From: Lachnospiraceae bacterium AC2031
GTDB taxonomy: Bacteria; Bacillota; Clostridia; Lachnospirales; Lachnospiraceae
Length of the DNA stretch: 64,000 nucleotides
Direction: 5' to 3'
NCBI GenBank assembly: GCA_000687975.1
Contig: JIAB01000001.1
Coordinates: forward strand, 1,240,001-1,304,000
Position numbers and translations under genes: made by a program. Shown here in pieces: positions 2,963 through 14,256 of this stretch. Position 1 is the stretch's first letter. Each line of letters starts with the position of its first letter. The notes beneath the pieces were generated by a model that had not been told where the DNA came from, made no database searches, and saw only the letters and a program-made list of their open reading frames with translations.

Positions 2963-3667
2963 TCAATCGAATCTGTCTCCATATTCGTACGACACGTGGT
3001 CACTTGTTTTCTCAACTATGTATACACTATACCCATCTTTACCAGAGAGATAATTACTTCGACATGATTCAAAATCCGTCGGCAAATAATCCTCAGGTAT
3101 TTTCTTCAACGACTTAAAATCATCCTTGAACGAGGTGTAGATATATGCTATCTCATTATTCCCAAGATCCATTGCATACTCATAGGCATAATCATCACAG
3201 TCTATTGCCTTGTAAACCGGATAACTAAACCGCTTACTTTCTTCATACTCCAAACTAGTTTCAATCTTTCTATCAGCACCCTTAAGTTCAATACCATCTT
3301 TCAAGCGATCAAGTTCACTTGAATAATCTGCATCCGAGTATTTGCATTTTAATAATACCTCGCATGTAGGATCATCCCATGTATCTCTATAATAAAAATA
3401 GAACTCCGGCTCCGAACCATTCATAAAGGCACTTTCAGGAATCGACTCTGGAAAAGAAACAAAGCCTGTTCGCACCTTTCCCACAACCTCACTCCTGTAC
3501 TTATGCATGGTTTCCTCGTATAGTTTTGCATCGTTCGTAATCTGTGCAGGACCACCATATAAAAAGTAGTAGCCAAACACAATCAATAAGACAGATATAG
3601 CTGCAGCCCCAACTACGCCACCTATTATAAGTCCTATTAACACCTTTCTTTTTTTCTTTTCTTTCAC
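2963..3667 (-). CDS. Single-pass membrane hypothetical protein
   Basis: A 234-residue protein starting at GTG (VKEKKKRKVLIGLI), chosen because GCGGAGGT lies 8 bases upstream; an ATG seven codons earlier would place that ribosome site inside the gene. A strongly basic start and one helix (residues ~10-33, Gly/Val/Ile rich) predict a signal anchor with the remaining ~200 residues outside. The external part has several DxY/DYAYEYAMD patterns but no motif I recognise. First gene of a two-gene set with 1812-2921. Confidence 0.55.
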   Translation of the reverse strand: MKEKKKRKVLIGLIIGGVVGAAAISVLLIVFGYYFLYGGPAQITNDAKLYEETMHKYRSEVVGKVRTGFVSFPESIPESAFMNGSEPEFYFYYRDTWDDPTCEVLLKCKYSDADYSSELDRLKDGIELKGADRKIETSLEYEESKRFSYPVYKAIDCDDYAYEYAMDLGNNEIAYIYTSFKDDFKSLKKIPEDYLPTDFESCRSNYLSGKDGYSVYIVEKTSDHVSYEYGDRFD

Positions 3668-3788
3668 TCTGTTTACCTCCGCAAGCATATCAACTTATTA
3701 CATATGGATTATCTCTCAAGTTTTTTAAATCGTTTTTATATTAAGTTTATCTGTCAATAATAATTATGTATCATACATATGCATCAAA

Positions 3789-3845
3789 ACTTATGCCGAT
3801 AATCTAAACTTATGCCGATAATCTAAACTTATGCCGATAATCAAA
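3789..3845. repeat. 19-bp tandem repeat, three copies
   Basis: The unit acttatgccgataatctaa occurs at 3789, 3808 and 3827 in perfect register (the last copy diverges in its final bases). It lies in the 760-bp gene-free stretch between 3668 and 4428 and directly precedes the 73-bp repeats. Confidence 0.9.
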
Positions 3846-3885
3846 TGTATTTCTATGCTAGCAACATTTTGAGTCCTTTTGACTT

Positions 3886-4150
3886 AGTTTTGTTGCCTTT
3901 TTCATTCTCTACAGCATTATTTCAGTCCCCAAAGCAACAATTCGAATCCTTTCAGCTTAGTTTTGTTGCTTTTATCCTTCTCTACAGCATTATTTCAGTC
4001 CCCAAAGCAACAATTCGAATCCTTTCAGCTTAGTTTTGTTGCTTTTATCCTTCTCCACAGCATTATTTCAGTCCCCAAAGCAACAATTCGAATCCTTTCA
4101 GCTTAGTTTTGTTGCTTTTATCCTTCTATCACGCATAATTTTAGCCATTT
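3886..4150. repeat. 73-bp tandem repeat, about 3.5 copies
   Basis: Units start at 3886, 3959, 4032 and 4105 with period 73 and a few substitutions; a degenerate piece precedes them at 3861. Each unit carries an internal inverted repeat, TTGTTGCTTT (5' side) with AAAGCAACAA (~37 bases later), so every copy can form a hairpin. The period is not a multiple of three and no ribosome site accompanies the plus-strand open frame, so the stretch is non-coding. Downstream (4145-4200) are two degenerate copies of catttcatcaac. Confidence 0.85.
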
Positions 4151-4271
4151 CATCAACATTTTCTGGCATTTCATCAACCTTTTGTTGTTTTATCTAATTA
4201 TAAAATGATACAACAGCCTTTACATTAATATAGGAAATTTGTTGTGAACAGATATTAAAATGTCGCAAAAT

Positions 4272-4312
4272 GAAAAACACTTTCCAAAACTAATTCGTCT
4301 TGGAAAGTGCTT
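4272..4312 (-). terminator. Terminator after ATP-grasp gene (end of tRNA operon)
   Basis: On the minus strand GCACTTTCCAA pairs with TTGGAAAGTGT and is followed by TTTTTC. It lies ~115 bases after the ATP-grasp stop and is the first convincing terminator after the tRNA array. A near-identical stem is found at 30021-30060. Confidence 0.8.
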
Positions 4313-4428
4313 AAGATATATCAATAAGCTTCATCAACTGTTTTTCAAACAATTTTGCTAGCTATAATTTCGAAAAAAACGCCTACAAGTATTTTCAACT
4401 CATAGACGCAATTTCGTAATATAATATA

Positions 4429-5220
4429 TTAGAATCTATATTCATCTTCTCTCTGAAGAAGCTGGCTCCACCTGGCAGAAATAAACTTAGCATACATCAC
4501 TTTTTCTAAGCCGTAGCATCCAAGTGCATAAGCATCATTCATCTCAACCAATAGCGTTCTTCCATCTTTGGTATAACAGATATCCATACTACAAGCTGCA
4601 GGTCTTCCTTCCCATTTCTTGAAGTCTTCTACCATGCTGCACACAACTTCACTGTCATAATGATACATAAAACTCTTTCTGTCTCTTCCAAGAAGCAGAC
4701 CGTAAGGTCTTATATCAAGGATTTCATCATAATAAATGAAGCCCCGCCATTCAGCCAATATATCTATTGGCTCACTGACAAGAACTTCATAATCCTCATA
4801 ACAGCTACCGCAACCAATCAGATCACGGATATCTTTAATTATATGTCCAGTAAACACTTTATCCTTTATAGGTTTTACAAAATAACCAGCACTCCATTTC
4901 TTCTCATCACAAGAAATACTGTAAATCGTATCATGCCAGACTTTTCTTCCAAGGTATTTTGTCATTACTTCCGGATAATCTGGAATATAAGGATCTGCTC
5001 CAAACTTCTTGAATATAGTATTACACTGACTAATATAATCGAGAACTATATCTTCTCGTTCAACCTTATCATATATCTCATCTATTGCATCGTAAAAATT
5101 TATCTCAGCCCCTAAATCCCTAAAGCCATACATAGCCTGTGCAAAATTAGGGTTATATGGAACTTGCATACCAATAGACTCATCGTATTTAGTTTTTAAC
5201 CAAACTTTGCCCATTTTCAT
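4429..5220 (-). CDS. R2K-type ATP-grasp domain protein (DUF4343-like)
   Basis: A 263-residue protein beginning MKMGKVWLKTKYD; an ATG five codons earlier exists, but the AAGGAGAT ribosome site lies inside that extension and is correctly spaced only for this start. The C-terminal half has the pattern EWRGFIYYDEILDIRPYG and then DICYTKDGRTLLVEMNDAY (residues ~170-240), matching the nucleotide-binding core of small ATP-grasp proteins of the R2K clade. Such enzymes ligate a carboxylate to an amine using ATP; known members occur in phage and peptide-modification contexts. It starts only 52 bases after tRNA-Ser(GCT), with just a weak U-less hairpin between, so it is probably read from the tRNA operon promoter. 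The substrate is unknown. Confidence 0.75.
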   Translation of the reverse strand: MKMGKVWLKTKYDESIGMQVPYNPNFAQAMYGFRDLGAEINFYDAIDEIYDKVEREDIVLDYISQCNTIFKKFGADPYIPDYPEVMTKYLGRKVWHDTIYSISCDEKKWSAGYFVKPIKDKVFTGHIIKDIRDLIGCGSCYEDYEVLVSEPIDILAEWRGFIYYDEILDIRPYGLLLGRDRKSFMYHYDSEVVCSMVEDFKKWEGRPAACSMDICYTKDGRTLLVEMNDAYALGCYGLEKVMYAKFISARWSQLLQREDEYRF

Positions 5221-5272
5221 TAATCTCCTTATCATTAATATGATAAATCTAGGGGCTGTTAGATTTACCTAG

Positions 5273-5364
5273 CGCCTGCATCTGGACTTGAACCAGAACA
5301 CCAGAAGAATCTGATTACTCAGAGATTAGCAATCTCCTGCCTTACCAATTAGGCTTATACAGGC
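5273..5364 (-). tRNA. tRNA-Ser(GCT)
   Basis: Acceptor GCCTGTA pairs with TGCAGGC, discriminator G, anticodon loop TTGCTAA, and a long variable arm, all expected of tRNA-Ser. CCA is not encoded. Last tRNA of block 3 of the operon. Confidence 0.93.
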
Positions 5365-5372
5365 ATATAATA

Positions 5373-5516
5373 GGTGGAGAGGGGAATTGTCGTATAGAAA
5401 ACAGTCCAGTGGACTGTTTTTAGGCAATTCAGGGAGAGCTATGCTCGACCTTGACCGAGCGAAGCGAGACCTTGAACCCCAGCAGTCCGCTGCAATTCCA
5501 ATTCTGCTCATCCACC
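5373..5516 (-). other. Interrupted tRNA-like element (possible tRNA-Tyr with insertion)
   Basis: Ends GGTGGA and TCCACC can form an acceptor stem across 144 nt. The 5' part carries a D-arm like that of the neighbouring tRNA-Leu(TAA) (AATTGGAAT loop), then GCGGACTG, which matches the first half of a typical Tyr anticodon arm up to G34. GGGGTTC and AATTCCCC could be split halves of a T-arm. In between are a perfect 10-bp hairpin (AAAACAGTCC/GGACTGTTTT), GAGC-ATA-GCTC, and a GCGAAGC mini-hairpin on the plus strand. I cannot rebuild a complete tRNA, so it may be a remnant. Two Tyr codons in the upstream leader ORF make Tyr the best guess. Confidence 0.35.
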
Positions 5517-5522
5517 TATGAG

Positions 5523-5604
5523 CGCCGTACACAGGATTTGCACCTGCAAGCCCTTTCGGGCCAACGGTTTTCAAGACCGCTTCCTCACTACCCGGACATA
5601 CGGC
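5523..5604 (-). tRNA. tRNA-Ser(TGA)
   Basis: Acceptor GCCGTAT/GTACGGC, loop CTTGAAA, a long variable arm closed by GCCC-GAAA-GGGC, discriminator G. Confidence 0.92.
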
Positions 5605-5618
5605 ATTAATAATACAAG

Positions 5619-5690
5619 TGTGACCTATGGGAATCGAACCCATATCTTCAGATCCACAATCTGAGGTACTGACCTTTGTACGAAAGCCAC
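5619..5690 (-). tRNA. tRNA-His(GTG), lacking the usual G-1:C73
   Basis: Full cloverleaf with anticodon stem TCAGA/TCTGA and loop TTGTGGA. The base before position 1 is T and the discriminator is A; bacterial tRNA-His normally encodes G-1 opposite C73. See findings. Confidence 0.88.
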
Positions 5691-5692
5691 AG

Positions 5693-5766
5693 TGATCCCA
5701 GCGGGACTCGAACCCAGCATTTCCGGATTGAAAGCCCGGTGAACTAGCCATTTATTCGATGGGACC
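5693..5766 (-). tRNA. tRNA-Glu(TTC)
   Basis: Acceptor GGTCCCA/TGGGATC with one G-T pair; anticodon stem CCGGG/TCCGG; loop CTTTCAA. The outer T-stem pair is mismatched. Confidence 0.88.
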
Positions 5767-5774
5767 TGATTGAT

Positions 5775-5848
5775 TGACGGATGCGGGACTCGAACCCGAC
5801 ATCTGGAGATTGAGAGTCTCCGATCCTAACCATTTAGACGAATCCGCC
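5775..5848 (-). tRNA. tRNA-Glu(CTC)
   Basis: Acceptor GGCGGAT/ATCCGTC, perfect anticodon stem GGAGA/TCTCC, loop CTCTCAA, discriminator A. Confidence 0.92.
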
Positions 5849-5852
5849 ATAA

Positions 5853-5926
5853 TACCCTCGGAGGGGATCGAACCCACAAATCACGGAGCTTAAATCCGAT
5901 GCATATTCCAATTCTGCTACGAGGGC
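5853..5926 (-). tRNA. tRNA-Leu(TAA) with a short variable loop
   Basis: Acceptor GCCCTCG/CGAGGGT, loop TTTAAGC giving anticodon TAA. Only five bases (GATTT) separate the anticodon and T stems, so it lacks the long variable arm that defines tRNA-Leu. One T-stem pair (50-64) and one anticodon-stem pair (27-43) are mismatched. See findings. Confidence 0.8.
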
Positions 5927-5933
5927 ATAAAAG

Positions 5934-6016
5934 TGTGCGTAAGAGGACTCGAACCTCCACCGGCTTTCCCGACTGCATTCTTAGTGCAGCTCCTATACCA
6001 ATTCGGATATACGCAC
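5934..6016 (-). tRNA. tRNA-Leu(AAG)
   Basis: Perfect acceptor GTGCGTA/TACGCAC, anticodon stem CTGCA/TGCAG, loop CTAAGAA, long variable arm with a GAAA loop, discriminator A. Confidence 0.93.
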
Positions 6017-6018
6017 AT

Positions 6019-6134
6019 ATCAGCTATCGATTACGAAGTAATCGACAGTCCGAGCAACGCGAGGATGCGTTATGCGAAGCATAACCAATACTTGCGAAGC
6101 AAGGATTGCAAGCACACTTAGTATGCTTGGCACA
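6019..6134 (+). repeat. 116-nt multi-hairpin element, copy A
   Basis: Begins ATCAGCT and ends TTGGCACA, with five hairpins in a row, several capped by GAA triloops (TCGATTAC-GAA-GTAATCGA; GTTATGC-GAA-GCATAAC; TTGC-GAA-GCAA). It fills the whole gap between two tRNA-Leu genes and is opposite in strand to them. A same-length relative with compensatory changes interrupts tRNA-Met at 6719-6834. Confidence 0.85.
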
Positions 6135-6135
6135 G

Positions 6136-6214
6136 TACCTGCGGAGGGAGTTGAACCCTCATGCTTTCGCCACGGTTTCTAAGACCGCTGTGTATCCCAT
6201 TCCACCACACAGGC
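6136..6214 (-). tRNA. tRNA-Leu(TAG)
   Basis: Acceptor GCCTGTG/CGCAGGT, anticodon stem GCGGT/ACCGT, loop CTTAGAA, variable arm GGCGAAAGCAT. First tRNA of block 3, directly after two terminators. Confidence 0.93.
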
Positions 6215-6224
6215 ATATTAATAA

Positions 6225-6258
6225 ACAAAAAAGGAGACACCTTTTTCGCGGCATCTCC
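6225..6258 (-). terminator. Terminator T2 ahead of tRNA block 3
   Basis: GGAGATGCC pairs with GGTGTCTCC (two wobble pairs) around a GCGAAAAA loop and is followed by TTTTTTG. It ends 10 bases before tRNA-Leu(TAG), so polymerase must read through it to make block 3. Confidence 0.85.
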
Positions 6259-6270
6259 ATAGTTAACACA

Positions 6271-6304
6271 GAAAAATACCGCCTATGCATCTGAGCATAA
6301 GCGG
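6271..6304 (-). terminator. Terminator T1 of the block 3 attenuator
   Basis: Ten-base-pair stem CCGCTTATGC/GCATAGGCGG with loop TCAGAT and a TATTTTTC tail, about 37 bases after the stop codon of the 30-residue leader ORF. Its 5' arm can instead pair with ATAAGTGG, which lies just after that stop codon. Confidence 0.85.
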
Positions 6305-6329
6305 CGATATATCATTTAGCATTCATTTT

Positions 6330-6338
6330 CCACTTATA
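6330..6338 (-). promoter_or_regulatory. Putative antiterminator segment, block 3
   Basis: TATAAGTGG, immediately downstream of the leader stop codon, is complementary to CCGCTTATG in the 5' arm of terminator T1 (9 pairs including two wobbles). A ribosome at the stop codon would cover it; a ribosome stalled upstream would leave it free. Inference from complementarity. Confidence 0.55.
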
Positions 6339-6340
6339 TC

Positions 6341-6433
6341 TCATTGCATAACAAATATTCCTTCGTCTGACTCTGATTCGAGACTAAGGAGCGAATATTC
6401 ACTATGCAGATATAAGTTTCTAAATGTGTTCAT
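6341..6433 (-). CDS. Leader peptide ORF, 30 residues, upstream of Leu/Ser/Glu/His tRNAs
   Basis: Starts MNTFRNLYLHSEYSL with an AAAGGA ribosome site 8 bases upstream. Residues 7-24 contain five Leu, five Ser, four Glu and one His; the only other residues in that span are two Tyr and one Asp. The block 3 tRNAs that follow are Leu (TAA, AAG, TAG), Glu (TTC, CTC), His and Ser (TGA, GCT). Codons TTA, CTG, CTC, CTT, CAT, AGT, TCG, TCA, GAA and GAG together sample every one of those anticodons. The ORF is followed by terminators T1 and T2 and then the tRNAs. I infer a regulatory leader peptide whose translation rate senses these charged tRNAs. A possible -10 TATAAT sits ~35 bases upstream, but no clear -35. 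Confidence 0.75.
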   Translation of the reverse strand: MNTFRNLYLHSEYSLLSLESESDEGIFVMQ

Positions 6434-6518
6434 TGCTTTTTTCCTTTCAAAGATTTTATGAGTTGATTATACCATCAAAAGAATATTTGTATAGTAAACC
6501 TGTGGTATATCATTTGAG

Positions 6519-6591
6519 TGGATGTAGAGGGATTTGAACCCCCGACCTTGAAATTAAGAGTTTCCTGCTCTACCAACTGAGCTACACATCC
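6519..6591 (-). tRNA. tRNA-Lys(CTT)
   Basis: Acceptor GGATGTG/TACATCC, loop CTCTTAA; the outer anticodon-stem pair is G27-A43. Last tRNA of block 2. Confidence 0.9.
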
Positions 6592-6604
6592 ATAATGGGT
6601 ATAA

Positions 6605-6676
6605 TGGGTATAATGGGATTTGAACCCATATCTGCGGCATTAAAAGTGCCGTGTTCTACCGTTATACTATATACCC
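6605..6676 (-). tRNA. tRNA-Lys(TTT)
   Basis: Perfect acceptor GGGTATA/TATACCC, anticodon stem CGGCA/TGCCG, loop CTTTTAA. The 3' flank holds a short tandem repeat of tataatggg. Confidence 0.93.
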
Positions 6677-6681
6677 ATAAA

Positions 6682-6871
6682 TTGCAGTAGTGAGACTCGA
6701 ACTCACGACCTTGTCCGTTGTGCCAAGCATCCAATGGATGCTTGCAAGCCTTGCTATACAAGGCTTGGTTCTGCTACGCAGAACGCATCCTCACTTCGTT
6801 CGGACCCTCGATTACTTTGTAATCGAGAGCTGATATGAAGAACCTGCTCTAACCAGCTGAGCTACACTGCA
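6682..6871 (-). tRNA. tRNA-Met(CAT), elongator type, interrupted by a 116-nt insertion
   Basis: Two 37-nt halves flank an insertion at 6719-6834. Joined, they give a standard 74-nt tRNA: acceptor TGCAGTG/TACTGCA, D-arm GCTC/GAGC, anticodon stem GGTTC/GGACA (G27-A43 as in the neighbouring Lys and Asn genes), loop TTCATAC, T-stem GTGAG/CTCAC, discriminator A. The junction falls at 36/37 or 37/38, the classical tRNA intron position. The insertion is too small for known group I or II introns. The gene could be spliced, or be inactivated by the insertion. Confidence 0.7.
6719..6834 (-). repeat. 116-nt multi-hairpin element, copy B (inside tRNA-Met)
   Basis: Starts ATCAGCT and ends TTGGCACA like copy A, and is exactly the same length. 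Hairpins: TCGATTAC-AAA-GTAATCGA; TCC-GA-AC-GAA-GT-GA-GGA with tandem G-A mismatches; GTTCTGC-GTA-GCAGAAC; AGCCTTG/CAAGGCT; AAGCATCC-ATT-GGATGCTT. Differences from copy A are largely compensatory. Both copies follow the trinucleotide CAT, and no target duplication is evident. Confidence 0.85.
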
Positions 6872-6873
6872 AG

Positions 6874-6947
6874 TGCAGACGAAGGGACTCGAACCCTTAA
6901 CCGTCGGATTAGAAATCCGATGCGCTGATCCATTACGCCACGTCTGC
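6874..6947 (-). tRNA. tRNA-Arg(TCT)
   Basis: Acceptor GCAGACG/CGTCTGC, anticodon stem TCGGA/TCCGA, loop TTTCTAA, discriminator A. Confidence 0.94.
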
Positions 6948-6954
6948 ATATAAG

Positions 6955-7042
6955 TCGGGATGATGGGAATCGAACCCATATTTACCTTGTTAGGGCCTAC
7001 GGCTTATAAGGCCGTGGCTCTCACCTGTTGAGCTACATCCCA
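6955..7042 (-). tRNA. tRNA-Ile(TAT) with an unusually long variable region
   Basis: Acceptor TGGGATG/CATCCCG (first pair U-G), anticodon stem ACGGC/GCCGT, loop CTTATAA. About 19 bases with a small CCT/AGG stem separate anticodon and T stems, which is class II size although Ile tRNAs are class I. See findings. Confidence 0.8.
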
Positions 7043-7043
7043 A

Positions 7044-7115
7044 CCCCTACGGGAGGACTCGAACCTCCAACCTTCTCATTAACAGTGAGCTGAACTACCA
7101 TTGTTCTACATAGGG
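7044..7115 (-). tRNA. tRNA-Asn(GTT)
   Basis: Acceptor CCCTATG/CGTAGGG, loop CTGTTAA, discriminator G; outer anticodon-stem pair G27-A43. Confidence 0.92.
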
Positions 7116-7121
7116 ATATAA

Positions 7122-7191
7122 AGTACCGTGTGAGAGTCGAACTCACTGAATCAGGTTTTGCAGACCGGACGGCAGCCGCTACCTACGGTAC
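7122..7191 (-). tRNA. tRNA-Cys(GCA)
   Basis: Perfect acceptor GTACCGT/ACGGTAC, loop CTGCAAA, discriminator T as usual for Cys. One anticodon-stem mismatch (28-42). Confidence 0.9.
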
Positions 7192-7197
7192 ATATAG

Positions 7198-7268
7198 CAG
7201 CCGAAACAGGAATCGAACCTATATCTTCTGAGTCAGAGTCAGATGTGATACCTTTACACTATTCGGCT
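7198..7268 (-). tRNA. tRNA-Gln(CTG)
   Basis: Perfect acceptor AGCCGAA/TTCGGCT, anticodon stem TCTGA/TCAGA, loop CTCTGAC, discriminator G. Confidence 0.92.
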
Positions 7269-7273
7269 ATAAG

Positions 7274-7345
7274 CAGATGCTAATGGATTTGAACCACTAC
7301 TAATAGTTTTGGAGACTATCGTGCTGCCAGTTACACTAAGCATCC
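7274..7345 (-). tRNA. tRNA-Trp(CCA)
   Basis: Acceptor GGATGCT/AGCATCT, anticodon stem ATAGT/ACTAT, loop CTCCAAA, discriminator G as usual for Trp. Confidence 0.94.
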
Positions 7346-7348
7346 ATA

Positions 7349-7421
7349 CAAGGGTGACGGGGATCGAACCCATATTACAGGAGTCAAAGTCCTGTGTACT
7401 GACCAGTTGTACGACACCCTA
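7349..7421 (-). tRNA. tRNA-Gln(TTG)
   Basis: Anticodon stem CAGGA/TCCTG, loop CTTTGAC, discriminator G. The first acceptor pair is an open U1-U72, compatible with the weak first pair common in tRNA-Gln. Confidence 0.9.
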
Positions 7422-7430
7422 TTATATAAG

Positions 7431-7504
7431 TAGGAAGGGTGAGACTCGAACTCACGACCGCCTGCTTATCAGACAGGAATTCTTACCAGCTGAACTACCT
7501 TCCT
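7431..7504 (-). tRNA. tRNA-Ile(GAT)
   Basis: Perfect acceptor AGGAAGG/CCTTCCT, anticodon stem CCTGT/GCAGG, loop CTGATAA. Confidence 0.94.
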
Positions 7505-7510
7505 ATATAG

Positions 7511-7583
7511 TGGGAAGAATAGGACTCGAACCTATACCGCGTGGAGCTTCAATCCACCGCTCTACCATTGGAGCTATCTTCCC
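7511..7583 (-). tRNA. tRNA-Phe(GAA)
   Basis: Acceptor GGGAAGA/TCTTCCC, anticodon stem GTGGA/TCCAC, loop TTGAAGC. First tRNA of block 2, starting right at the U-run of the upstream terminator. Confidence 0.94.
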
Positions 7584-7619
7584 AAAAAGAAAACCACCTG
7601 CCTTATCAGACAAGTGGTC
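7584..7619 (-). terminator. Terminator of the block 2 attenuator
   Basis: Eight-pair stem ACCACTTG/CAGGTGGT with loop TCTGATAAGG, then TTTTCTTTTT leading directly into tRNA-Phe. The 5' arm plus loop is complementary to a stretch in the last codons of the upstream 40-residue ORF. Confidence 0.88.
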
Positions 7620-7646
7620 AAACTCCGCTAAGCATTCAATTACTGC

Positions 7647-7769
7647 TTATACAGCACACAATCCACATAATCTGATAAAGACACGACAAATAATCCAGTT
7701 TTTAATATTGCACCAAAACTGAATATTCTGTATCTGCTTAAATTTTCTCATCATTTCTGTAGATCGCAT
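7647..7769 (-). CDS. Leader peptide ORF, 40 residues, codon-matched to tRNA block 2
   Basis: Starts MRSTEMMRKF; AAGGAG lies 10 bases upstream. Residues 6-28 are 23 consecutive amino acids drawn only from Met, Arg(AGA), Lys, Phe, Gln, Ile, Asn, Trp and Cys. These are exactly the specificities of the 12 tRNA genes of the next block (Phe, Ile GAT, Gln TTG, Trp, Gln CTG, Cys, Asn, Ile TAT, Arg TCT, Met, Lys TTT, Lys CTT). Codons ATG, AGA, AAA, AAG, TTT, CAG, ATA, ATT, AAT, AAC, TGG, TGC and TGT all occur. A terminator follows, and an internal segment near the stop can pair with it. The ORF starts 30 bases after tRNA-fMet with no room for a promoter, so it is co-transcribed with block 1. Inferred to be an attenuation leader. 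Confidence 0.85.
   Translation of the reverse strand: MRSTEMMRKFKQIQNIQFWCNIKNWIICRVFIRLCGLCAV
7663..7680 (-). promoter_or_regulatory. Putative antiterminator segment, block 2
   Basis: CTTTATCAGATTATGTGG, within the last codons of the leader ORF, can pair with CCACTTGTCTGATAAGG of the terminator: ten pairs (one wobble), an internal loop, then four more. Its downstream end is 13 bases from the stop codon, within reach of a terminating ribosome. Confidence 0.65.
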
Positions 7770-7798
7770 TGTTTCATTTCTCCTTCTTATTATTTGAG

Positions 7799-7959
7799 TA
7801 GCGGGAACCGGATTTGAACCGGCAACCTCCGGGTTATGGGCCCGGCTATCTTCCTCTCGCACTTCGTGCTCGAGGAGGACACTCGTCAAGGTATCTGTCA
7901 TTTGCGCAAGCGCATGACAGATACTTTGACTCGTTATTTCCAATTGATAATATCCCGCG
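7799..7959 (-). tRNA. tRNA-fMet(CAT), probably interrupted in the D-loop by ~87 nt
   Basis: The 3' half is typical of an initiator: anticodon stem CCGGG/CCCGG with the three G-C pairs and a CCCATAA loop (C33 instead of U33), T-arm GCCGG/CCGGT, TCCCGCT then A. The matching 5' acceptor CGCGGGA lies ~150 bases upstream, giving the initiator-type open first pair (C1-U72). D-stem TATC/GATA encloses AATTGGAA plus an ~87-nt insertion. The insertion has a 17-position hairpin (one mismatch) and a second hairpin TCCTC-GA-GCAC-GAA-GTGC-GA-GAGGA. Removing it leaves a 74-nt tRNA. The 5' half also resembles the hairpin element at 8119-8182, which lowers confidence. Confidence 0.6.
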
Positions 7960-7961
7960 AT

Positions 7962-8030
7962 TGGAAATGTAGGACTCGAACCTCTCCCCTAGAATCCAAA
8001 TCTAGTATGCTACCATTACACCACACTCCC
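7962..8030 (-). tRNA. tRNA-Pro(TGG), weak T-stem
   Basis: Acceptor GGGAGTG/CATTTCC (two wobbles), perfect anticodon stem CTAGA/TCTAG with loop TTTGGAT, T-loop TTCGAGT. Only three T-stem pairs (AGG/CCT) form, so it may be a decaying gene. Confidence 0.75.
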
Positions 8031-8038
8031 AATATAAG

Positions 8039-8110
8039 CGACTATGAAGGGAATTGAACCCTTACCCCCAGAGAGACAATCTGGTACGCTAACCATTACG
8101 CCACACAGCC
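8039..8110 (-). tRNA. tRNA-Asp(GTC)
   Basis: Acceptor GGCTGTG/CATAGTC, anticodon stem CCAGA/TCTGG, loop TTGTCTC, T-stem AAGGG/CCCTT, discriminator G. Confidence 0.93.
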
Positions 8111-8118
8111 ATAGTGGA

Positions 8119-8182
8119 GTATCTATTGTCCGCTGAAACTATAGACTCCCGTTCCAATCAATAATATCCGTCCAATAGACAC
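8119..8182 (-). other. Hairpin element between tRNA-Gly and tRNA-Asp
   Basis: GTGTCTATTG pairs with CAATAGATAC around ~44 bases. An inner stretch, GGATATTATTGATTGGAA, is close to the start of the interrupted tRNA-fMet (GGATATTATCAATTGGAA). No tRNA can be folded from it. Confidence 0.5.
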
Positions 8183-8185
8183 CTA

Positions 8186-8257
8186 AGTGGATAGCGAGAA
8201 TCGAACTCGCACCATTTGTTTGGAAGACAAATATACTAACCGTTATACGATACCCAC
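8186..8257 (-). tRNA. tRNA-Gly(TCC)
   Basis: Acceptor GTGGGTA/TATCCAC, anticodon stem TTTGT/ACAAA, loop CTTCCAA, discriminator T. Confidence 0.93.
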
Positions 8258-8261
8258 AGGT

Positions 8262-8292
8262 GAGCGAGAGAAGTGCCTGTTTTCTCCCGCTC
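8262..8292. other. Inter-tRNA hairpin with AGTGCCTGT loop
   Basis: Plus-strand GAGCGAGAGAA pairs with TTCTCCCGCTC around GTGCCTGT. The same loop in the opposite orientation occurs in the hairpin at 8849-8868 at the operon start. No U-run follows on the tRNA strand. Confidence 0.6.
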
Positions 8293-8329
8293 GATATAAA
8301 ATTATTATTTGGTAGTTTATGCTACCGAG

Positions 8330-8401
8330 TAGACCATATAGGAGTCGAACCTATATCTTCCCGTTCGTAGCGGGACATTCTATCCGTTAGACTAATGGTC
8401 T
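8330..8401 (-). tRNA. tRNA-Arg(ACG)
   Basis: Perfect acceptor AGACCAT/ATGGTCT, anticodon stem TCCCG/CGGGA, loop CTACGAA. A34 is presumably edited to inosine, as known for this tRNA in bacteria. Confidence 0.94.
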
Positions 8402-8403
8402 AG

Positions 8404-8476
8404 TGGAACGTACAGGATTTGAACCTGTGACATTCTGATTGCAAATCAGATGCTCTCCCAACTGAGCTAACGCCCC
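8404..8476 (-). tRNA. tRNA-Ala(TGC)
   Basis: Acceptor GGGGCGT/ACGTTCC, anticodon stem TCTGA/TCAGA, loop TTTGCAA. First tRNA of the operon, 27 bases after the attenuator terminator. Its wobble-rich acceptor keeps G2-T71 and G3-T70; the G-U identity pair at 3-70 is the known AlaRS determinant. Confidence 0.94.
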
Positions 8477-8502
8477 ATAATCATTTATTATTTGAAATAA
8501 AA

Positions 8503-8539
8503 AACCGCCTGTATCTTTTTTATCTTGATACAGACGGTT
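8503..8539 (-). terminator. Terminator of the block 1 attenuator
   Basis: Thirteen-pair stem AACCGTCTGTATC/GATACAGGCGGTT followed by TTTTATTTC, between the 56-residue leader ORF and tRNA-Ala. The sequence GATACAGGCG of the 3' arm is duplicated inside the end of the leader ORF, where it can compete for the same 5' arm. Confidence 0.9.
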
Positions 8540-8565
8540 CGATATCTTTCATAAGCAAAATGTGC

Positions 8566-8736
8566 CTAATATCGCCTGTATCTATACCTATTTCTATCCC
8601 AATCCTTATCTTTTCCTTCTTTGCCGGCTATAGCCACCTGATCAAAATGAGGCGCCTGAAGGCATGAGAAATTAAACCCACATATAGCAGGTCGATTAAT
8701 GACGATTATTCTATTCATCATTACTAAAGATCTCAT
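8566..8736 (-). CDS. Leader peptide ORF, 56 residues, ahead of tRNA block 1
   Basis: Starts MRSLVMMNRIIV; GGTAAGGA is 7-8 bases upstream. It contains all amino acids except Thr. Compared with the tRNAs directly downstream (Ala, Arg ACG, Gly, Asp, Pro, fMet) it has four Ala, eight Arg (only two as CGN), three Gly, four Asp and two Pro codons. Enrichment is weaker than in the other two leaders, perhaps because this first leader gates the whole operon. The ORF begins with ATG-GATCT-AATGATGA spacing like the 40-residue leader (MRSxxMM), hinting at common origin. Its final codons (AGA TAC AGG CGA) contain the antiterminator. I see no domain; a regulatory peptide is inferred. Confidence 0.75.
   Translation of the reverse strand: MRSLVMMNRIIVINRPAICGFNFSCLQAPHFDQVAIAGKEGKDKDWDRNRYRYRRY
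8573..8582 (-). promoter_or_regulatory. Antiterminator segment, block 1
   Basis: GATACAGGCG inside the last codons of the leader pairs with CGTCTGTATC, the 5' arm of the terminator (ten pairs, one wobble). It lies 5 bases before the stop codon, so a ribosome finishing the peptide would mask it and favour termination. Confidence 0.75.
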
Positions 8737-8848
8737 TTGCTTTTCCTTACCTCTTTCTGTCAGATTTGTTTATCATATGAAATCACTTCAGAAGTTATTA
8801 ATGATTTCAAAAAAATATGCCCATATCTCCGTTTAGACATAACAAACG

Positions 8849-8868
8849 GAGAGACAGGCACTTCTCTC
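8849..8868 (-). other. Hairpin at the 5' end of the tRNA operon transcript
   Basis: GAGAGA pairs with TCTCTC around AGTGCCTG on the minus strand, right at the predicted transcription start (~8869). A second hairpin CTCCGTTT/AAACGGAG (8827-8851) and a T7 run at 8811-8817 follow in the 5' leader. Confidence 0.65.
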
Positions 8869-8875
8869 GAAACAT

Positions 8876-8904
8876 AATATACTAAATCTCAAGATAAATG
8901 TCAA
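8876..8904 (-). promoter_or_regulatory. Sigma-A promoter of the tRNA operon
   Basis: TTGACA (8899-8904) and TATATT (8876-8881) on the minus strand with exactly 17 bases between. It is the only strong promoter seen between thiC and the array, and precedes the 56-residue leader by about 130 bases. Confidence 0.88.
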
Positions 8905-8957
8905 CAACTTTTTTAAAAAAATTTTGACACTTTTTTAAAAAATATTTTCAACTAGTT

Positions 8958-10313
8958 TTACAGTATATCCACATGTTCACCATTTAATGCTTTGTTCATG
9001 CTTCTTACTGCGCAGAATTTTCCACACATAGAACATGTATCATCATGTTCTGGTGACCTGTCAGCCCGGATTGCTTTTGCTGTTTCTGGATCAAGTGCAC
9101 ATTCCCACTGTTTCTCCCAGTCTAACGCTCTTCTCGCATCTGCCATAGCATTATCTATATCCATAGCATGCGGAATTTTCTTAGCTATATCTGCGGCATG
9201 AGCTGCAATCTTAGATGCCATGATTCCCTGCTTTACATCATCAATATTAGGAAGCGCCAGGTGTTCTGCTGGTGTTACATAGCAAAGGAATGCTGCTCCT
9301 GCAGAAGCCGCAATAGCTCCACCGATAGCAGATGTGATATGATCATATCCTGGAGCAATATCTGTAACTATAGGTCCAAGTACATAGAATGGAGCTCCCA
9401 TACATATGGTCTGCTGTATCTTCATATTAGCAGCTATCTGATCCATAGGCATATGACCAGGCCCCTCAACCATTACCTGAACATCTCTTTCCCATGCACG
9501 CTTAGTTAGTTCTCCAAGACGAACAAGTTCCTCTATCTGACATACGTCACTTCCGTCAGCAATACAGCCTGGACGGCAGGCATCACCTAGGGAGATGGTT
9601 ACATCATATTCACGACATATTTCAAGTATCTCATCATAGTATTCATAAAATGGATTCTCTTCGCCTGTCATACACATCCATGCAAATACAAGTGAACCCC
9701 CTCGTGATACTATATTCATTTTTCTCTTATGTTTCTTAATCTGCTCTATAGTCTTACGAGTGATACCACAATGAAGTGTTACAAAATCAACACCGTCTTC
9801 AGCATGAAGTCTTATAACATCAAGGAAGTCCTGGGCAGTAAGTGTCTCTAGGTCTCTCTGATAATGAATTACACTATCATATACCGGAACTGTTCCAATC
9901 ATAGCAGGACATTCGCTAGTAAGTTTTCTTCTGAAAGGCTGTGTGTCTCCGTGGGATGAAAGATCCATGATAGCTTCGGCCCCCATATTTACAGCCTCCA
10001 TAACCTTCTTCATCTCGATATCATAATCTTTACAGTCTCTGGAAACGCCAAGATTAACATTTATCTTGGTCTTCAGCATTGAACCTACTCCATTAGGATC
10101 GATACATTTATGATTCTTGTTGGCGCAGATTGCCACCTGTCCTCTTGCAACAAGGTCACGGATTTCCTCCTCAGTTCTGTACTCTTTAGCTGCTACTGCT
10201 TTCATTTCCGGTGTGATGATACCCTGTCTTGCGGCATCCATCTGAGTTGTATAATTTTTTTCACCGGCGCCTTCACCGAGCTTTCTCTCAGTGATATTTA
10301 ATGCTTCTTTCAT
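8958..10313 (-). CDS. thiC: Phosphomethylpyrimidine synthase ThiC
   Basis: 451 residues. A radical SAM enzyme converting aminoimidazole ribotide to HMP phosphate in thiamine synthesis. The C-terminus carries [11 protein letters not shown] (CxxCx4C cluster ligands), and the middle has the family blocks [12 protein letters not shown] and [20 protein letters not shown]. The start [11 protein letters not shown] follows AAAGGAG at proper spacing; an ATG eight codons upstream would swallow the ribosome site. Last gene of the thi operon, 83 bases after tenI; that gap contains a stem-loop (GCGGTACA/TGTATCGC, 10350-10375). Confidence 0.97.
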
Positions 10314-14099: not shown

Positions 14100-14129
14100 A
14101 CTTCATTCACATAAAAGAATTAATTCTTT

Positions 14130-14213
14130 GACTCTTCCCTACGTTGGCATTATCCAAATCAGGTTAACGGGTCGAAGTTTATACTTCCTCTCAGCCAGCA
14201 CACTAGCTCCCCA
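14130..14213 (-). promoter_or_regulatory. TPP riboswitch
   Basis: On the minus strand the TPP aptamer signatures occur in order: GGGGAGC, GGCTGAGAGG, GACCCGTTAACCTGATTTGG, and TAATGCCAACGTAGGGAA. Binding of thiamine pyrophosphate is expected to favour the downstream terminator and shut off thiSFGH-tenI-thiC. Confidence 0.96.
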
Positions 14214-14256
14214 ATGATATTAATATCATATCCGTCTTTATTAAGTTCAGTGACTA

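What the first reader, a model, noticed from the sequence alone, without database searches (positions are those of the whole stretch)
5273..8904. A tRNA operon split by three leader-ORF/terminator modules: apparent attenuation of tRNA genes
Seen: one promoter, then three repeats of the order small ORF with ribosome site, rho-independent terminator, tRNA block (6, 12 and 9 members). In each case the peptide is enriched for the amino acids served by the next block, and sequence at the ORF end can pair with the terminator 5' arm. Established: in trp/his/leu leader attenuation a ribosome stalled at control codons frees an antiterminator. Inference: here the same logic senses charged-tRNA scarcity and boosts tRNA transcription, a feedback on decoding capacity. 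I know of no described attenuator acting on tRNA genes, but cannot search.
Basis: partly seen in the sequence, partly recalled or inferred. Interest (0 to 1): 0.96.

Follow-up and report, generated by a model that had tools for sequence, protein, structure and literature searches.

The report
Leader-peptide switches controlling tRNA gene arrays
A gut-type bacterium carries a spare set of tRNA genes in three blocks, each behind a tiny peptide gene spelled largely with the amino acids that block serves and a stop signal for transcription, which looks like an alarm that makes replacement tRNAs when those tRNAs run short; the same design turns up in phages, a plasmid and relatives, often beside a tRNA-repair enzyme.

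Summary
On the minus strand, 8905-5273, three leader-ORF + intrinsic-terminator modules precede tRNA blocks of 6, 12 and 9 members. Relatives, found through a neighbouring HTH gene and not through leader composition, occur in GTDB genomes (mostly titled Lachnospiraceae), in a 253-kb phage contig with the same three-block division, and on Ruminococcus albus 7 plasmid pRUMAL01. A fixed rule called 88 leader-block pairs (59 distinct peptides). Leaders hold the amino acids of their own block more than those of other leaders' blocks (0.31 vs 0.20, z 8.2, 32 clusters), the excess is specific to their reading frame, and own pairing ranks first in 9 of 9 distinct multi-leader arrays. ORF ends can pair with the terminator 5' arm. 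Isoacceptor-level matching was not significant. Many relatives carry the RNA ligase RtcB in the same operon; this genome has a separate leader-terminator-RtcB-HTH locus. Best reading: ribosome-mediated attenuation that senses shortage of specific tRNAs and switches on replacement tRNAs (and, in relatives, tRNA repair), plausibly against tRNA-cleaving toxins or defences. No transcript or translation data were available; function is inferred. Ten library searches listed no described attenuator of tRNA genes.

The parts
8876..8904 (-). candidate promoter P1 (TTGACA-17-TATATT)
   Evidence: 11 of 12 consensus matches; function not tested
8566..8736 (-). leader ORF LP1, MRSLVMMNRIIVINRPAICGFNFSCLQAPHFDQVAIAGKEGKDKDWDRNRYRYRRY
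   Evidence: 43% and 35% identical to LP1 of phage contigs L131 and L132
8572..8583 (-). LP1 segment 2, can pair with the terminator 5' arm
   Evidence: duplex -16.5 kcal/mol, shuffle p 0.035; not better than shuffles in the ensemble test (0.51 vs 0.48)
8502..8540 (-). terminator T1
   Evidence: minimum-energy fold of 8500-8600, z -5.5
7799..8476 (-). tRNA block 1: Ala(UGC), Arg(ACG), Gly(UCC), Asp(GUC), Pro(UGG), Met-like gene with hairpin insert (7799-7960)
   Evidence: Clostridiales-1 RNA below-threshold hit 7812-7945
7647..7769 (-). leader ORF LP2, MRSTEMMRKFKQIQNIQFWCNIKNWIICRVFIRLCGLCAV
7662..7676 (-). LP2 segment 2, can pair with the terminator 5' arm
   Evidence: shuffle p 0.06; 0.84 vs 0.55 for shuffles; the antiterminator is the minimum-energy fold of 7585-7690
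7592..7619 (-). terminator T2
6518..7583 (-). tRNA block 2: Phe, Ile(GAU), Gln(UUG), Trp, Gln(CUG), Cys, Asn, Ile(UAU), Arg(UCU), Met-like gene with 119-nt insert (6719-6875), Lys(UUU), Lys(CUU)
   Evidence: insert repeated at 6016-6134; the Met-like gene is read by eye
6466..6493 (-). candidate promoter P3 ahead of LP3 (extended -10)
   Evidence: 10 of 12 matches with TG; same spacing in the L031 copy
6341..6433 (-). leader ORF LP3, MNTFRNLYLHSEYSLLSLESESDEGIFVMQ
   Evidence: paralogous module in L031
6329..6344 (-). LP3 segment 2, can pair with the terminator 5' arm
   Evidence: duplex -15.9 kcal/mol, shuffle p 0.02; the antiterminator is the minimum-energy fold of 6270-6360
6278..6305 (-). 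terminator T3
6233..6258 (-). second terminator-like hairpin T3b
   Evidence: also present in the L031 copy
5273..6214 (-). tRNA block 3: Leu(UAG), Leu(AAG), Leu(UAA), Glu(CUC), Glu(UUC), His, Ser(UGA), insert-bearing gene at the Tyr place (5372-5523), Ser(GCU)
   Evidence: Tyr place by comparison with the L131 order
4432..5235 (-). ATP-grasp R2K_2 protein starting 37 nt after the last tRNA, possibly the last gene of the operon
   Evidence: Pfam PF18299 2.2e-39; relatives after arrays in L096 (same contig as L257) and L269

Best explanation
Each block is controlled by ribosome-mediated transcription attenuation. RNA polymerase transcribes a leader whose small ORF is a string of test codons for the tRNAs encoded just downstream. 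If decoding is fast, the ribosome reaches the ORF end and covers segment 2; the 5' arm of the terminator then pairs with its own 3' arm and transcription stops before the tRNA genes. If a needed aminoacyl-tRNA is scarce, the ribosome stalls on the test codons, segment 2 pairs with the terminator 5' arm, and the polymerase runs into the tRNA block. Shown from sequence: ORF, terminator, own-block composition in the own frame, alternative pairing kept in relatives, more synonymous than non-synonymous change in the ORF. Inferred: translation, stalling, read-through, and the physiological trigger, which I take to be loss of tRNAs by cleavage, because relatives place the RNA ligase RtcB in the same attenuated operon.
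For: A fixed rule over 158 loci plus window 4001-10000 gave 88 leader-block pairs and 59 distinct peptides. Own-block residue fraction 0.307 against 0.198 for mismatched blocks at 32 clusters (z 8.2) and 0.326 against 0.228 at 13 clusters (z 4.7); none of 100,000 permutations as high in either. Own pairing ranks first in 9 of 9 distinct multi-leader arrays. Own frame 0.36 against 0.21-0.24 in the five other frames, n=45. pN/pS 0.33 summed over 83 leader pairs. Terminator 5' arm predicted paired upstream 0.67 with the ribosome stalled, 0.54 for shuffled upstream sequence, 0.32 with the ribosome at the stop; stalled above shuffled in 49 of 59. Alignment of 31 related leaders: antiterminator 85.1% of cells paired against 28-57% slid, terminator 97.3% against 35-50% slid. 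Midpoint of segment 2 within -60 to +10 nt of the ORF end in 49 of 59. Same design in phage contigs and on the R. albus 7 plasmid. RtcB association.
Against: No expression data. Isoacceptor-level codon match not significant (Ser p 0.07, Ile 0.11, Arg 1, Leu 1). Only 16 of 59 leaders beat shuffles at p<=0.05 in the duplex test, mean z -0.82; window LP1 does not beat shuffles in the ensemble test. The alignment structure was taken from one of its rows, which favours it over slid registers, and antiterminator pairing exceeds the column-shuffle control only slightly (85.1 vs 83.1%). Window LP1 carries Val without a called Val tRNA. In L088 and L116 the first tRNA is Pro(AGG) where relatives have Lys, with the leader little changed. 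12 of 70 GTDB loci with a tRNA or RtcB had no leader called; viral contig L297 has tRNAs plus RtcB and no leader called. Leaders are in part homologous and loci in part redundant, so the counts are not independent; a 40-locus follow-up gave only one new leader family and re-sampled at least four contigs already held. The window's own operon has no RtcB.
Confidence: 0.8

Rival explanations
1. Attenuation is real but the signal is amino-acid starvation (uncharged tRNA), as in trp/his/leu leaders, rather than loss of the tRNAs.
For: A stalled ribosome cannot tell uncharged from missing tRNA; the architecture is the classical one.
Against: More tRNA does not relieve a lack of amino acid (reasoning). 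Operons in relatives carry RNA repair genes (RtcB, Ro-like DUF2828); the L131 phage contig also holds a Pnkp-type ligase.
Confidence: 0.25
2. The leaders are generic translation-stress switches: any slow ribosome, for example under ribosome-targeting antibiotics, opens the terminator, and composition is secondary.
For: The Anabaena trn tRNA operon is induced by translation-targeting antibiotics (PMC10272220, abstract and passages). The RtcB leader of this genome spans 17 residue types in positions 2-31; leaders of RtcB loci without a called tRNA average 15.5 types (n=10) against 13.7 for leaders with at least two tRNAs (n=44).
Against: The own-block match within single arrays (first rank in 9 of 9) has no reason to exist in a generic switch.
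Confidence: 0.12
3. The composition match is inheritance: a few leader families spread with fixed blocks and have no regulatory meaning.
For: Many leaders belong to one homologous family (31 rows in A5); the follow-up found mainly the same families.
Against: The signal persists at 13 clusters (z 4.7), is frame-specific, and homologous LP1 leaders differ in Thr in step with Thr tRNAs.
Confidence: 0.06
4. The leaders act as T-box-like riboswitches that bind tRNA directly.
For: They precede tRNA genes in Bacillota, where T-boxes are common (recalled).
Against: No T-box family among the Rfam hits in the window, in seven array loci, or at E<=1 in window 5000-9100.
Confidence: 0.02

Closest known systems
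Leader-peptide attenuators of trp/his/leu and aminoacyl-tRNA synthetase operons (recalled; a Streptomyces alaS leader seen in a table passage of PMC8079986)
   Same: Small ORF rich in the relevant amino acid, intrinsic terminator, alternative antiterminator pairing.
   Different: Here the regulated genes are tRNA genes (and RtcB in relatives), and one leader tests several amino acids at once in step with a block.
Anabaena PCC 7120 trn operon with TrcR (PMC10272220: abstract, section list and passages)
   Same: A 26-gene secondary tRNA operon on a megaplasmid, silent until translation stress; rtcB under the same regulator.
   Different: Controlled by a DNA-binding RHH repressor; 'leader' and 'attenuat' occur 0 times in its main text.
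RtcR-regulated rtcB RNA repair operons (recalled, and as mentioned in PMC10272220 passages)
   Same: RNA repair genes switched on by tRNA damage.
   Different: A dedicated transcription activator rather than a ribosome-reading leader.
Phage tRNAs against tRNA-cleaving defences (PMC10264068 abstract and passages; PMC11555353 abstract and section list; PMC7824862 passages)
   Same: Phage tRNAs replace tRNAs cut by host nucleases; jumbo phages combine tRNAs with RNA ligases.
   Different: 'attenuat' occurs 0 times in the main texts of PMC10264068 and PMC7824862; the PMC11555353 abstract calls the T5-like tRNA-Tyr gene highly expressed. No leader control appeared in what I saw.

Membership tests
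Ribosome-mediated (leader-peptide) transcription attenuators | Translatable leader ORF with ribosome site | tested here: met
   pN/pS 0.33. Translation itself not measured.
Ribosome-mediated (leader-peptide) transcription attenuators | Control codons match what the operon supplies | tested here: met
   Amino-acid level; isoacceptor level not significant.
Ribosome-mediated (leader-peptide) transcription attenuators | Intrinsic terminator between leader ORF and first gene | tested here: met
   required by the calling rule, so the 88 pairs do not test it.
Ribosome-mediated (leader-peptide) transcription attenuators | Mutually exclusive antiterminator formed by the ORF-end segment | tested here: met
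   in single leaders 16 of 59 at p<=0.05, and weak for window LP1.
Ribosome-mediated (leader-peptide) transcription attenuators | Read-through rises when cognate aminoacyl-tRNA is scarce | not testable with these tools
   Needs expression data.
T-box riboswitches | Match to the T-box family model | tested here: not met
   No T-box hit.
RtcB RNA repair operons | rtcB in the operon | tested here: inconclusive
   Not in the window array; RtcB in 35 of 79 GTDB loci and as a separate leader-bearing locus in this genome.
Phage-type tRNA arrays | Array layout shared with phage genomes | tested here: met
   Same three-block division, similar order, in L131 and L132; the 253-kb contig of L132 has DNA polymerase, helicases and a major head protein hit.
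Anabaena trn/TrcR-type operon | Array promoter repressed by an RHH regulator (TrcR) | not tested
   No search for RHH genes or operator sites was made.

The most novel reading that the evidence does not exclude
A mobile tRNA-loss alarm: leader peptides written as test strings read out, amino acid by amino acid, whether the cell can still decode, and a stall releases replacement tRNAs together (in many relatives) with an RNA ligase that reseals cut tRNAs. In phages this would be an inducible counter-defence against tRNA-cleaving immunity; in bacteria, an inducible rescue from tRNA-cleaving toxins.
Probability: 0.55. Interest if true: 0.95.

Novelty: new variant of a known kind. Interest (0 to 1): 0.93.

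Why it matters
It would be feedback control of decoding capacity itself: a cell or phage measures tRNA supply by translating test codons and makes the missing tRNAs. It offers a reason why some phages and gut bacteria carry spare tRNA sets, links them to RNA repair, and makes the old question of what phage tRNAs are for directly testable, because each leader states in codons which tRNA losses it should answer. Ruminococcus albus 7 carries three such modules on a sequenced plasmid, so a cultured organism (recalled; DSM 20455 in the record) is at hand.

Tried and rejected
T-box or other known riboswitch at the leaders: none among Rfam hits. Isoacceptor-level codon matching: tested, not significant. 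A third early locus with an array-like match, L034, showed a few tRNA-like genes but no leader-terminator-HTH unit that I recognised. Further viral scans returned mostly contigs already held; L297 has tRNAs plus RtcB without a called leader. HTH loci without tRNA or RtcB: 9 of 79 GTDB loci and 9 of 18 IMG/VR loci, 8 of 79 after Rfam found a long tRNA-like hit in L049; L044 and L110 have a 680-aa protein without Pfam match downstream, L056 a DNA methylase. The Ligilactobacillus and Ruminococcus plasmid hits: only the Ruminococcus one was found to carry tRNAs; of the 33 Ligilactobacillus records one was opened and has protein genes around the HTH gene.

Host tRNA census is incomplete: 39 tRNAs outside the array with 33 anticodons, from a search that scored 150 of 183 candidates. 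Ala(UGC), Ile(GAU), Ile(UAU) and Ser(UGA) were seen only in the array; the Ala pattern search agreed, the Ser pattern matched nothing, not even the array, and says nothing. No 16S rRNA was found in the held genome (that search rang in 9 of 14 control genomes), so rRNA-operon tRNAs may be hidden and I cannot say that the array is dispensable.

Considered and set aside: the insert-bearing tRNA genes as spliced introns. The 119-nt insert also lies between tRNA genes in the opposite orientation, which fits a mobile hairpin element or an RNA gene better.


Full report
What is there. The window is G000:C1:1240001-1304000 of a single-contig 3.19-Mb genome. Its family also contains G264, whose contig length (384,616) equals that of Parablautia intestinalis RAYQ01000001.1, so I take the family to be Lachnospiraceae (inference). 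Ahead of each block are a small ORF with an SD-like site and an intrinsic terminator. The array tRNAs are 59-73% identical to the genome's own tRNAs of the same anticodon (20 of 24 have such a partner among 39 other tRNAs found; census incomplete), so it is a diverged second set.

How relatives were found. Of three family genomes opened after the first search, two (L032, L033) showed leader-terminator units, tRNA blocks and a small HTH gene; L034 did not. An alignment of four such HTH proteins (HTH_3/HTH_26) was used to scan GTDB contigs (best 79 loci kept of 543 relatives) and IMG/VR (18 loci), and single proteins to search plasmids and phages. Loci were thus chosen by the HTH gene, not by leader composition. 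Of the 79 GTDB loci, 59 have at least one tRNA anywhere in the locus, 35 have RtcB, 70 have either, and 58 have a called leader with terminator; of the 18 IMG/VR loci, 9 have tRNA or RtcB and all 9 of these have a called leader (some called leaders are implausible).

The match. A fixed rule (ATG start, SD-like site, stop within -130 to +12 nt of a terminator, strongest terminator, then best SD, then earliest start) applied to 158 loci (89 with a tRNA) and window 4001-10000 gave 88 pairs in 68 sources and 59 distinct peptides, implausible calls kept. The mean fraction of leader residues in the own block's amino-acid set was 0.307 against 0.198 for other blocks at 32 clusters (50% identity; z 8.2) and 0.326 against 0.228 at 13 clusters (35%, single linkage; z 4.7); none of 100,000 permutations was as high. 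Swapping leaders within one array, own pairing ranks first in 9 of 9 distinct arrays, of which L059/L063 and L131/L132 are close relatives. The excess is in the leader's own frame (0.36 against 0.21-0.24 in the five others, n=45; own frame higher in 41 to 43 of 45). Examples: MYYVTINKQFNNKQFMQFCKNQKC before Gln Cys Phe Lys Lys Gln Asn Met (L059); MLYVMICKQHRHEEKRFWFCQERQF before Trp Gln Lys Glu Glu Phe Cys Gln Arg Lys Arg His (L117; the rule took an earlier start); in R. albus 7, SYSYSYSS before Tyr Ser Ser Ser Ser and DDYQCFFSFSFDWQDE before Asp Gln Cys Phe Gln Trp. Against: at the level of isoacceptor codons there is no significant match.

Change in step with gene content. Window LP1 and the phage-contig LP1 leaders are homologous (43% and 35% identity). 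Both phage leaders have five Thr and arrays with a Thr tRNA; the window leader has none and no Thr tRNA was called. Val does not follow (3 against 4, no Val tRNA called in the window array). The rule missed the phage LP1 modules, but a strong bulged terminator follows each (folds with z -5.4 and -4.9), and by eye the ORF end GGATATAGACG of L131 is the exact complement of its terminator arm CGTCTATATCC, where the window has ATACAGGCG against CGTCTGTAT, a paired change.

The switch. For each leader the upstream segment that pairs best with the terminator 5' arm was scored against dinucleotide shuffles: 16 of 59 reach p<=0.05, mean z -0.82. The midpoint of that segment lies from 60 nt before to 10 nt after the ORF end in 49 of 59. 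In a folding model without the terminator 3' arm, the 5' arm is paired upstream 0.67 with the ribosome stalled at codon 12, 0.54 with shuffled upstream sequence, 0.32 with the ribosome at the stop; stalled exceeds shuffled in 49 of 59 (Wilcoxon p 7e-8, optimistic because leaders are related). In an alignment of 31 related leaders both helices are kept: antiterminator 85.1% of cells paired (28-57% slid, 83.1% with columns shuffled), terminator 97.3% (35-50% slid, 92.0% shuffled); covariation is clear for the terminator and modest for the antiterminator, and the structure was taken from one of the rows. For window LP2 and LP3 the antiterminator is the minimum-energy fold of the isolated region, for LP1 the terminator is. 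pN/pS is 0.33 summed over 83 overlapping pairs, last 14 codons left out.

What travels with it. RtcB RNA ligase (PF01139) ends about 50 nt before the HTH gene in many loci. Upstream of RtcB a leader with terminator was called in 39 of 50 rows (49 loci, 33 distinct peptides, a few implausible and some with tRNAs between). This genome has RtcB and HTH without called tRNAs at 1,093,276-1,094,667, with leader and terminator just upstream, and a second LP3-like leader, terminator and HTH gene at 1.636 Mb. A DUF2828/VWA protein, which I recall as Ro-like, adjoins RtcB in L061, L071 and L104, lies in the L117 array, and stands alone on the other strand in L077. The 253-kb contig with the window's three-block division has phage DNA polymerase, helicases, homing endonuclease and a major head protein hit, and the 55-kb contig a kinase-phosphoesterase-RNA ligase outside its array. 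The window array is followed by an R2K ATP-grasp gene; relatives follow arrays in L096 (same contig as L227 and L257) and L269, and lie near the locus edge in L058 and L065.

Interpretation. Attenuation by a test-codon leader is the simplest account of ORF, terminator, own-frame own-block composition and alternative pairing. I prefer tRNA loss over amino-acid starvation as the natural trigger because more tRNA does not help a starved cell, and because a repair enzyme shares many of the operons. This last step is inference.

Literature. Ten searches of an open-licence library, of which I saw listings with titles and abstract starts (20 of 21 and 15 of 22 papers), showed no paper on attenuation of tRNA genes; most subscription papers are missing there. 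One paper I would have checked for RtcB gene neighbourhoods is not held. Closest is the Anabaena trn operon, repressed by TrcR and induced by translation stress, with rtcB under the same repressor (PMC10272220, abstract, section list and passages). Phage tRNAs as answers to tRNA-cleaving defence: PMC10264068 (abstract and passages), PMC11555353 (abstract and section list), PMC7824862 (passages).

Noticed in passing
window 7799-7960, 6719-6875, 5372-5523 (-): Three tRNA-like genes carry hairpin-rich inserts; the first overlaps a sub-threshold Clostridiales-1 RNA hit (43.8 bits, cut-off 48), the second a weak Y RNA-like (YrlA) hit (30.3, cut-off 69). They may be tRNA-like RNA genes rather than broken tRNAs, which would fit the Ro-like proteins in relatives.
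   Followed up: partly
window 6719-6837 (-) and 6016-6134 (+); G000:C1:3058168-3058227: A 119-nt element of several hairpins, two copies 82% identical in opposite orientation, one inside a Met-like tRNA gene next to the anticodon, and a partial third copy beside another tRNA pair.
   Followed up: partly
L131 3559-3994: GOLLD RNA (RF02032, 170 bits) sits inside the phage tRNA array, overlapping an Arg tRNA call at 3632.
   Followed up: no
window 4432-5235 (-): R2K_2 ATP-grasp gene right after the last tRNA; relatives after arrays in L096 and L269. Its role is unknown.
   Followed up: partly
L033 7560-7740 (-): A Tyr-anticodon gene with hairpins apparently inserted in its D and T loops, seen by eye between His and Ser tRNAs.
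   Followed up: no
window 3783-4194: Tandem repeats with periods 19 and 73, downstream of the ATP-grasp gene on the minus strand.
   Followed up: no
L088 and L116: Pro(AGG) tRNA stands where relatives have Lys as first tRNA, while the leader is nearly unchanged.
   Followed up: no
window 14119-14223 (-): TPP riboswitch (69.5 bits).
   Followed up: no
L044 6437-8491, L110 6514-8559: A 680-aa protein with no Pfam match follows leader, terminator and HTH gene, so the switch may also control other genes.
   Followed up: partly
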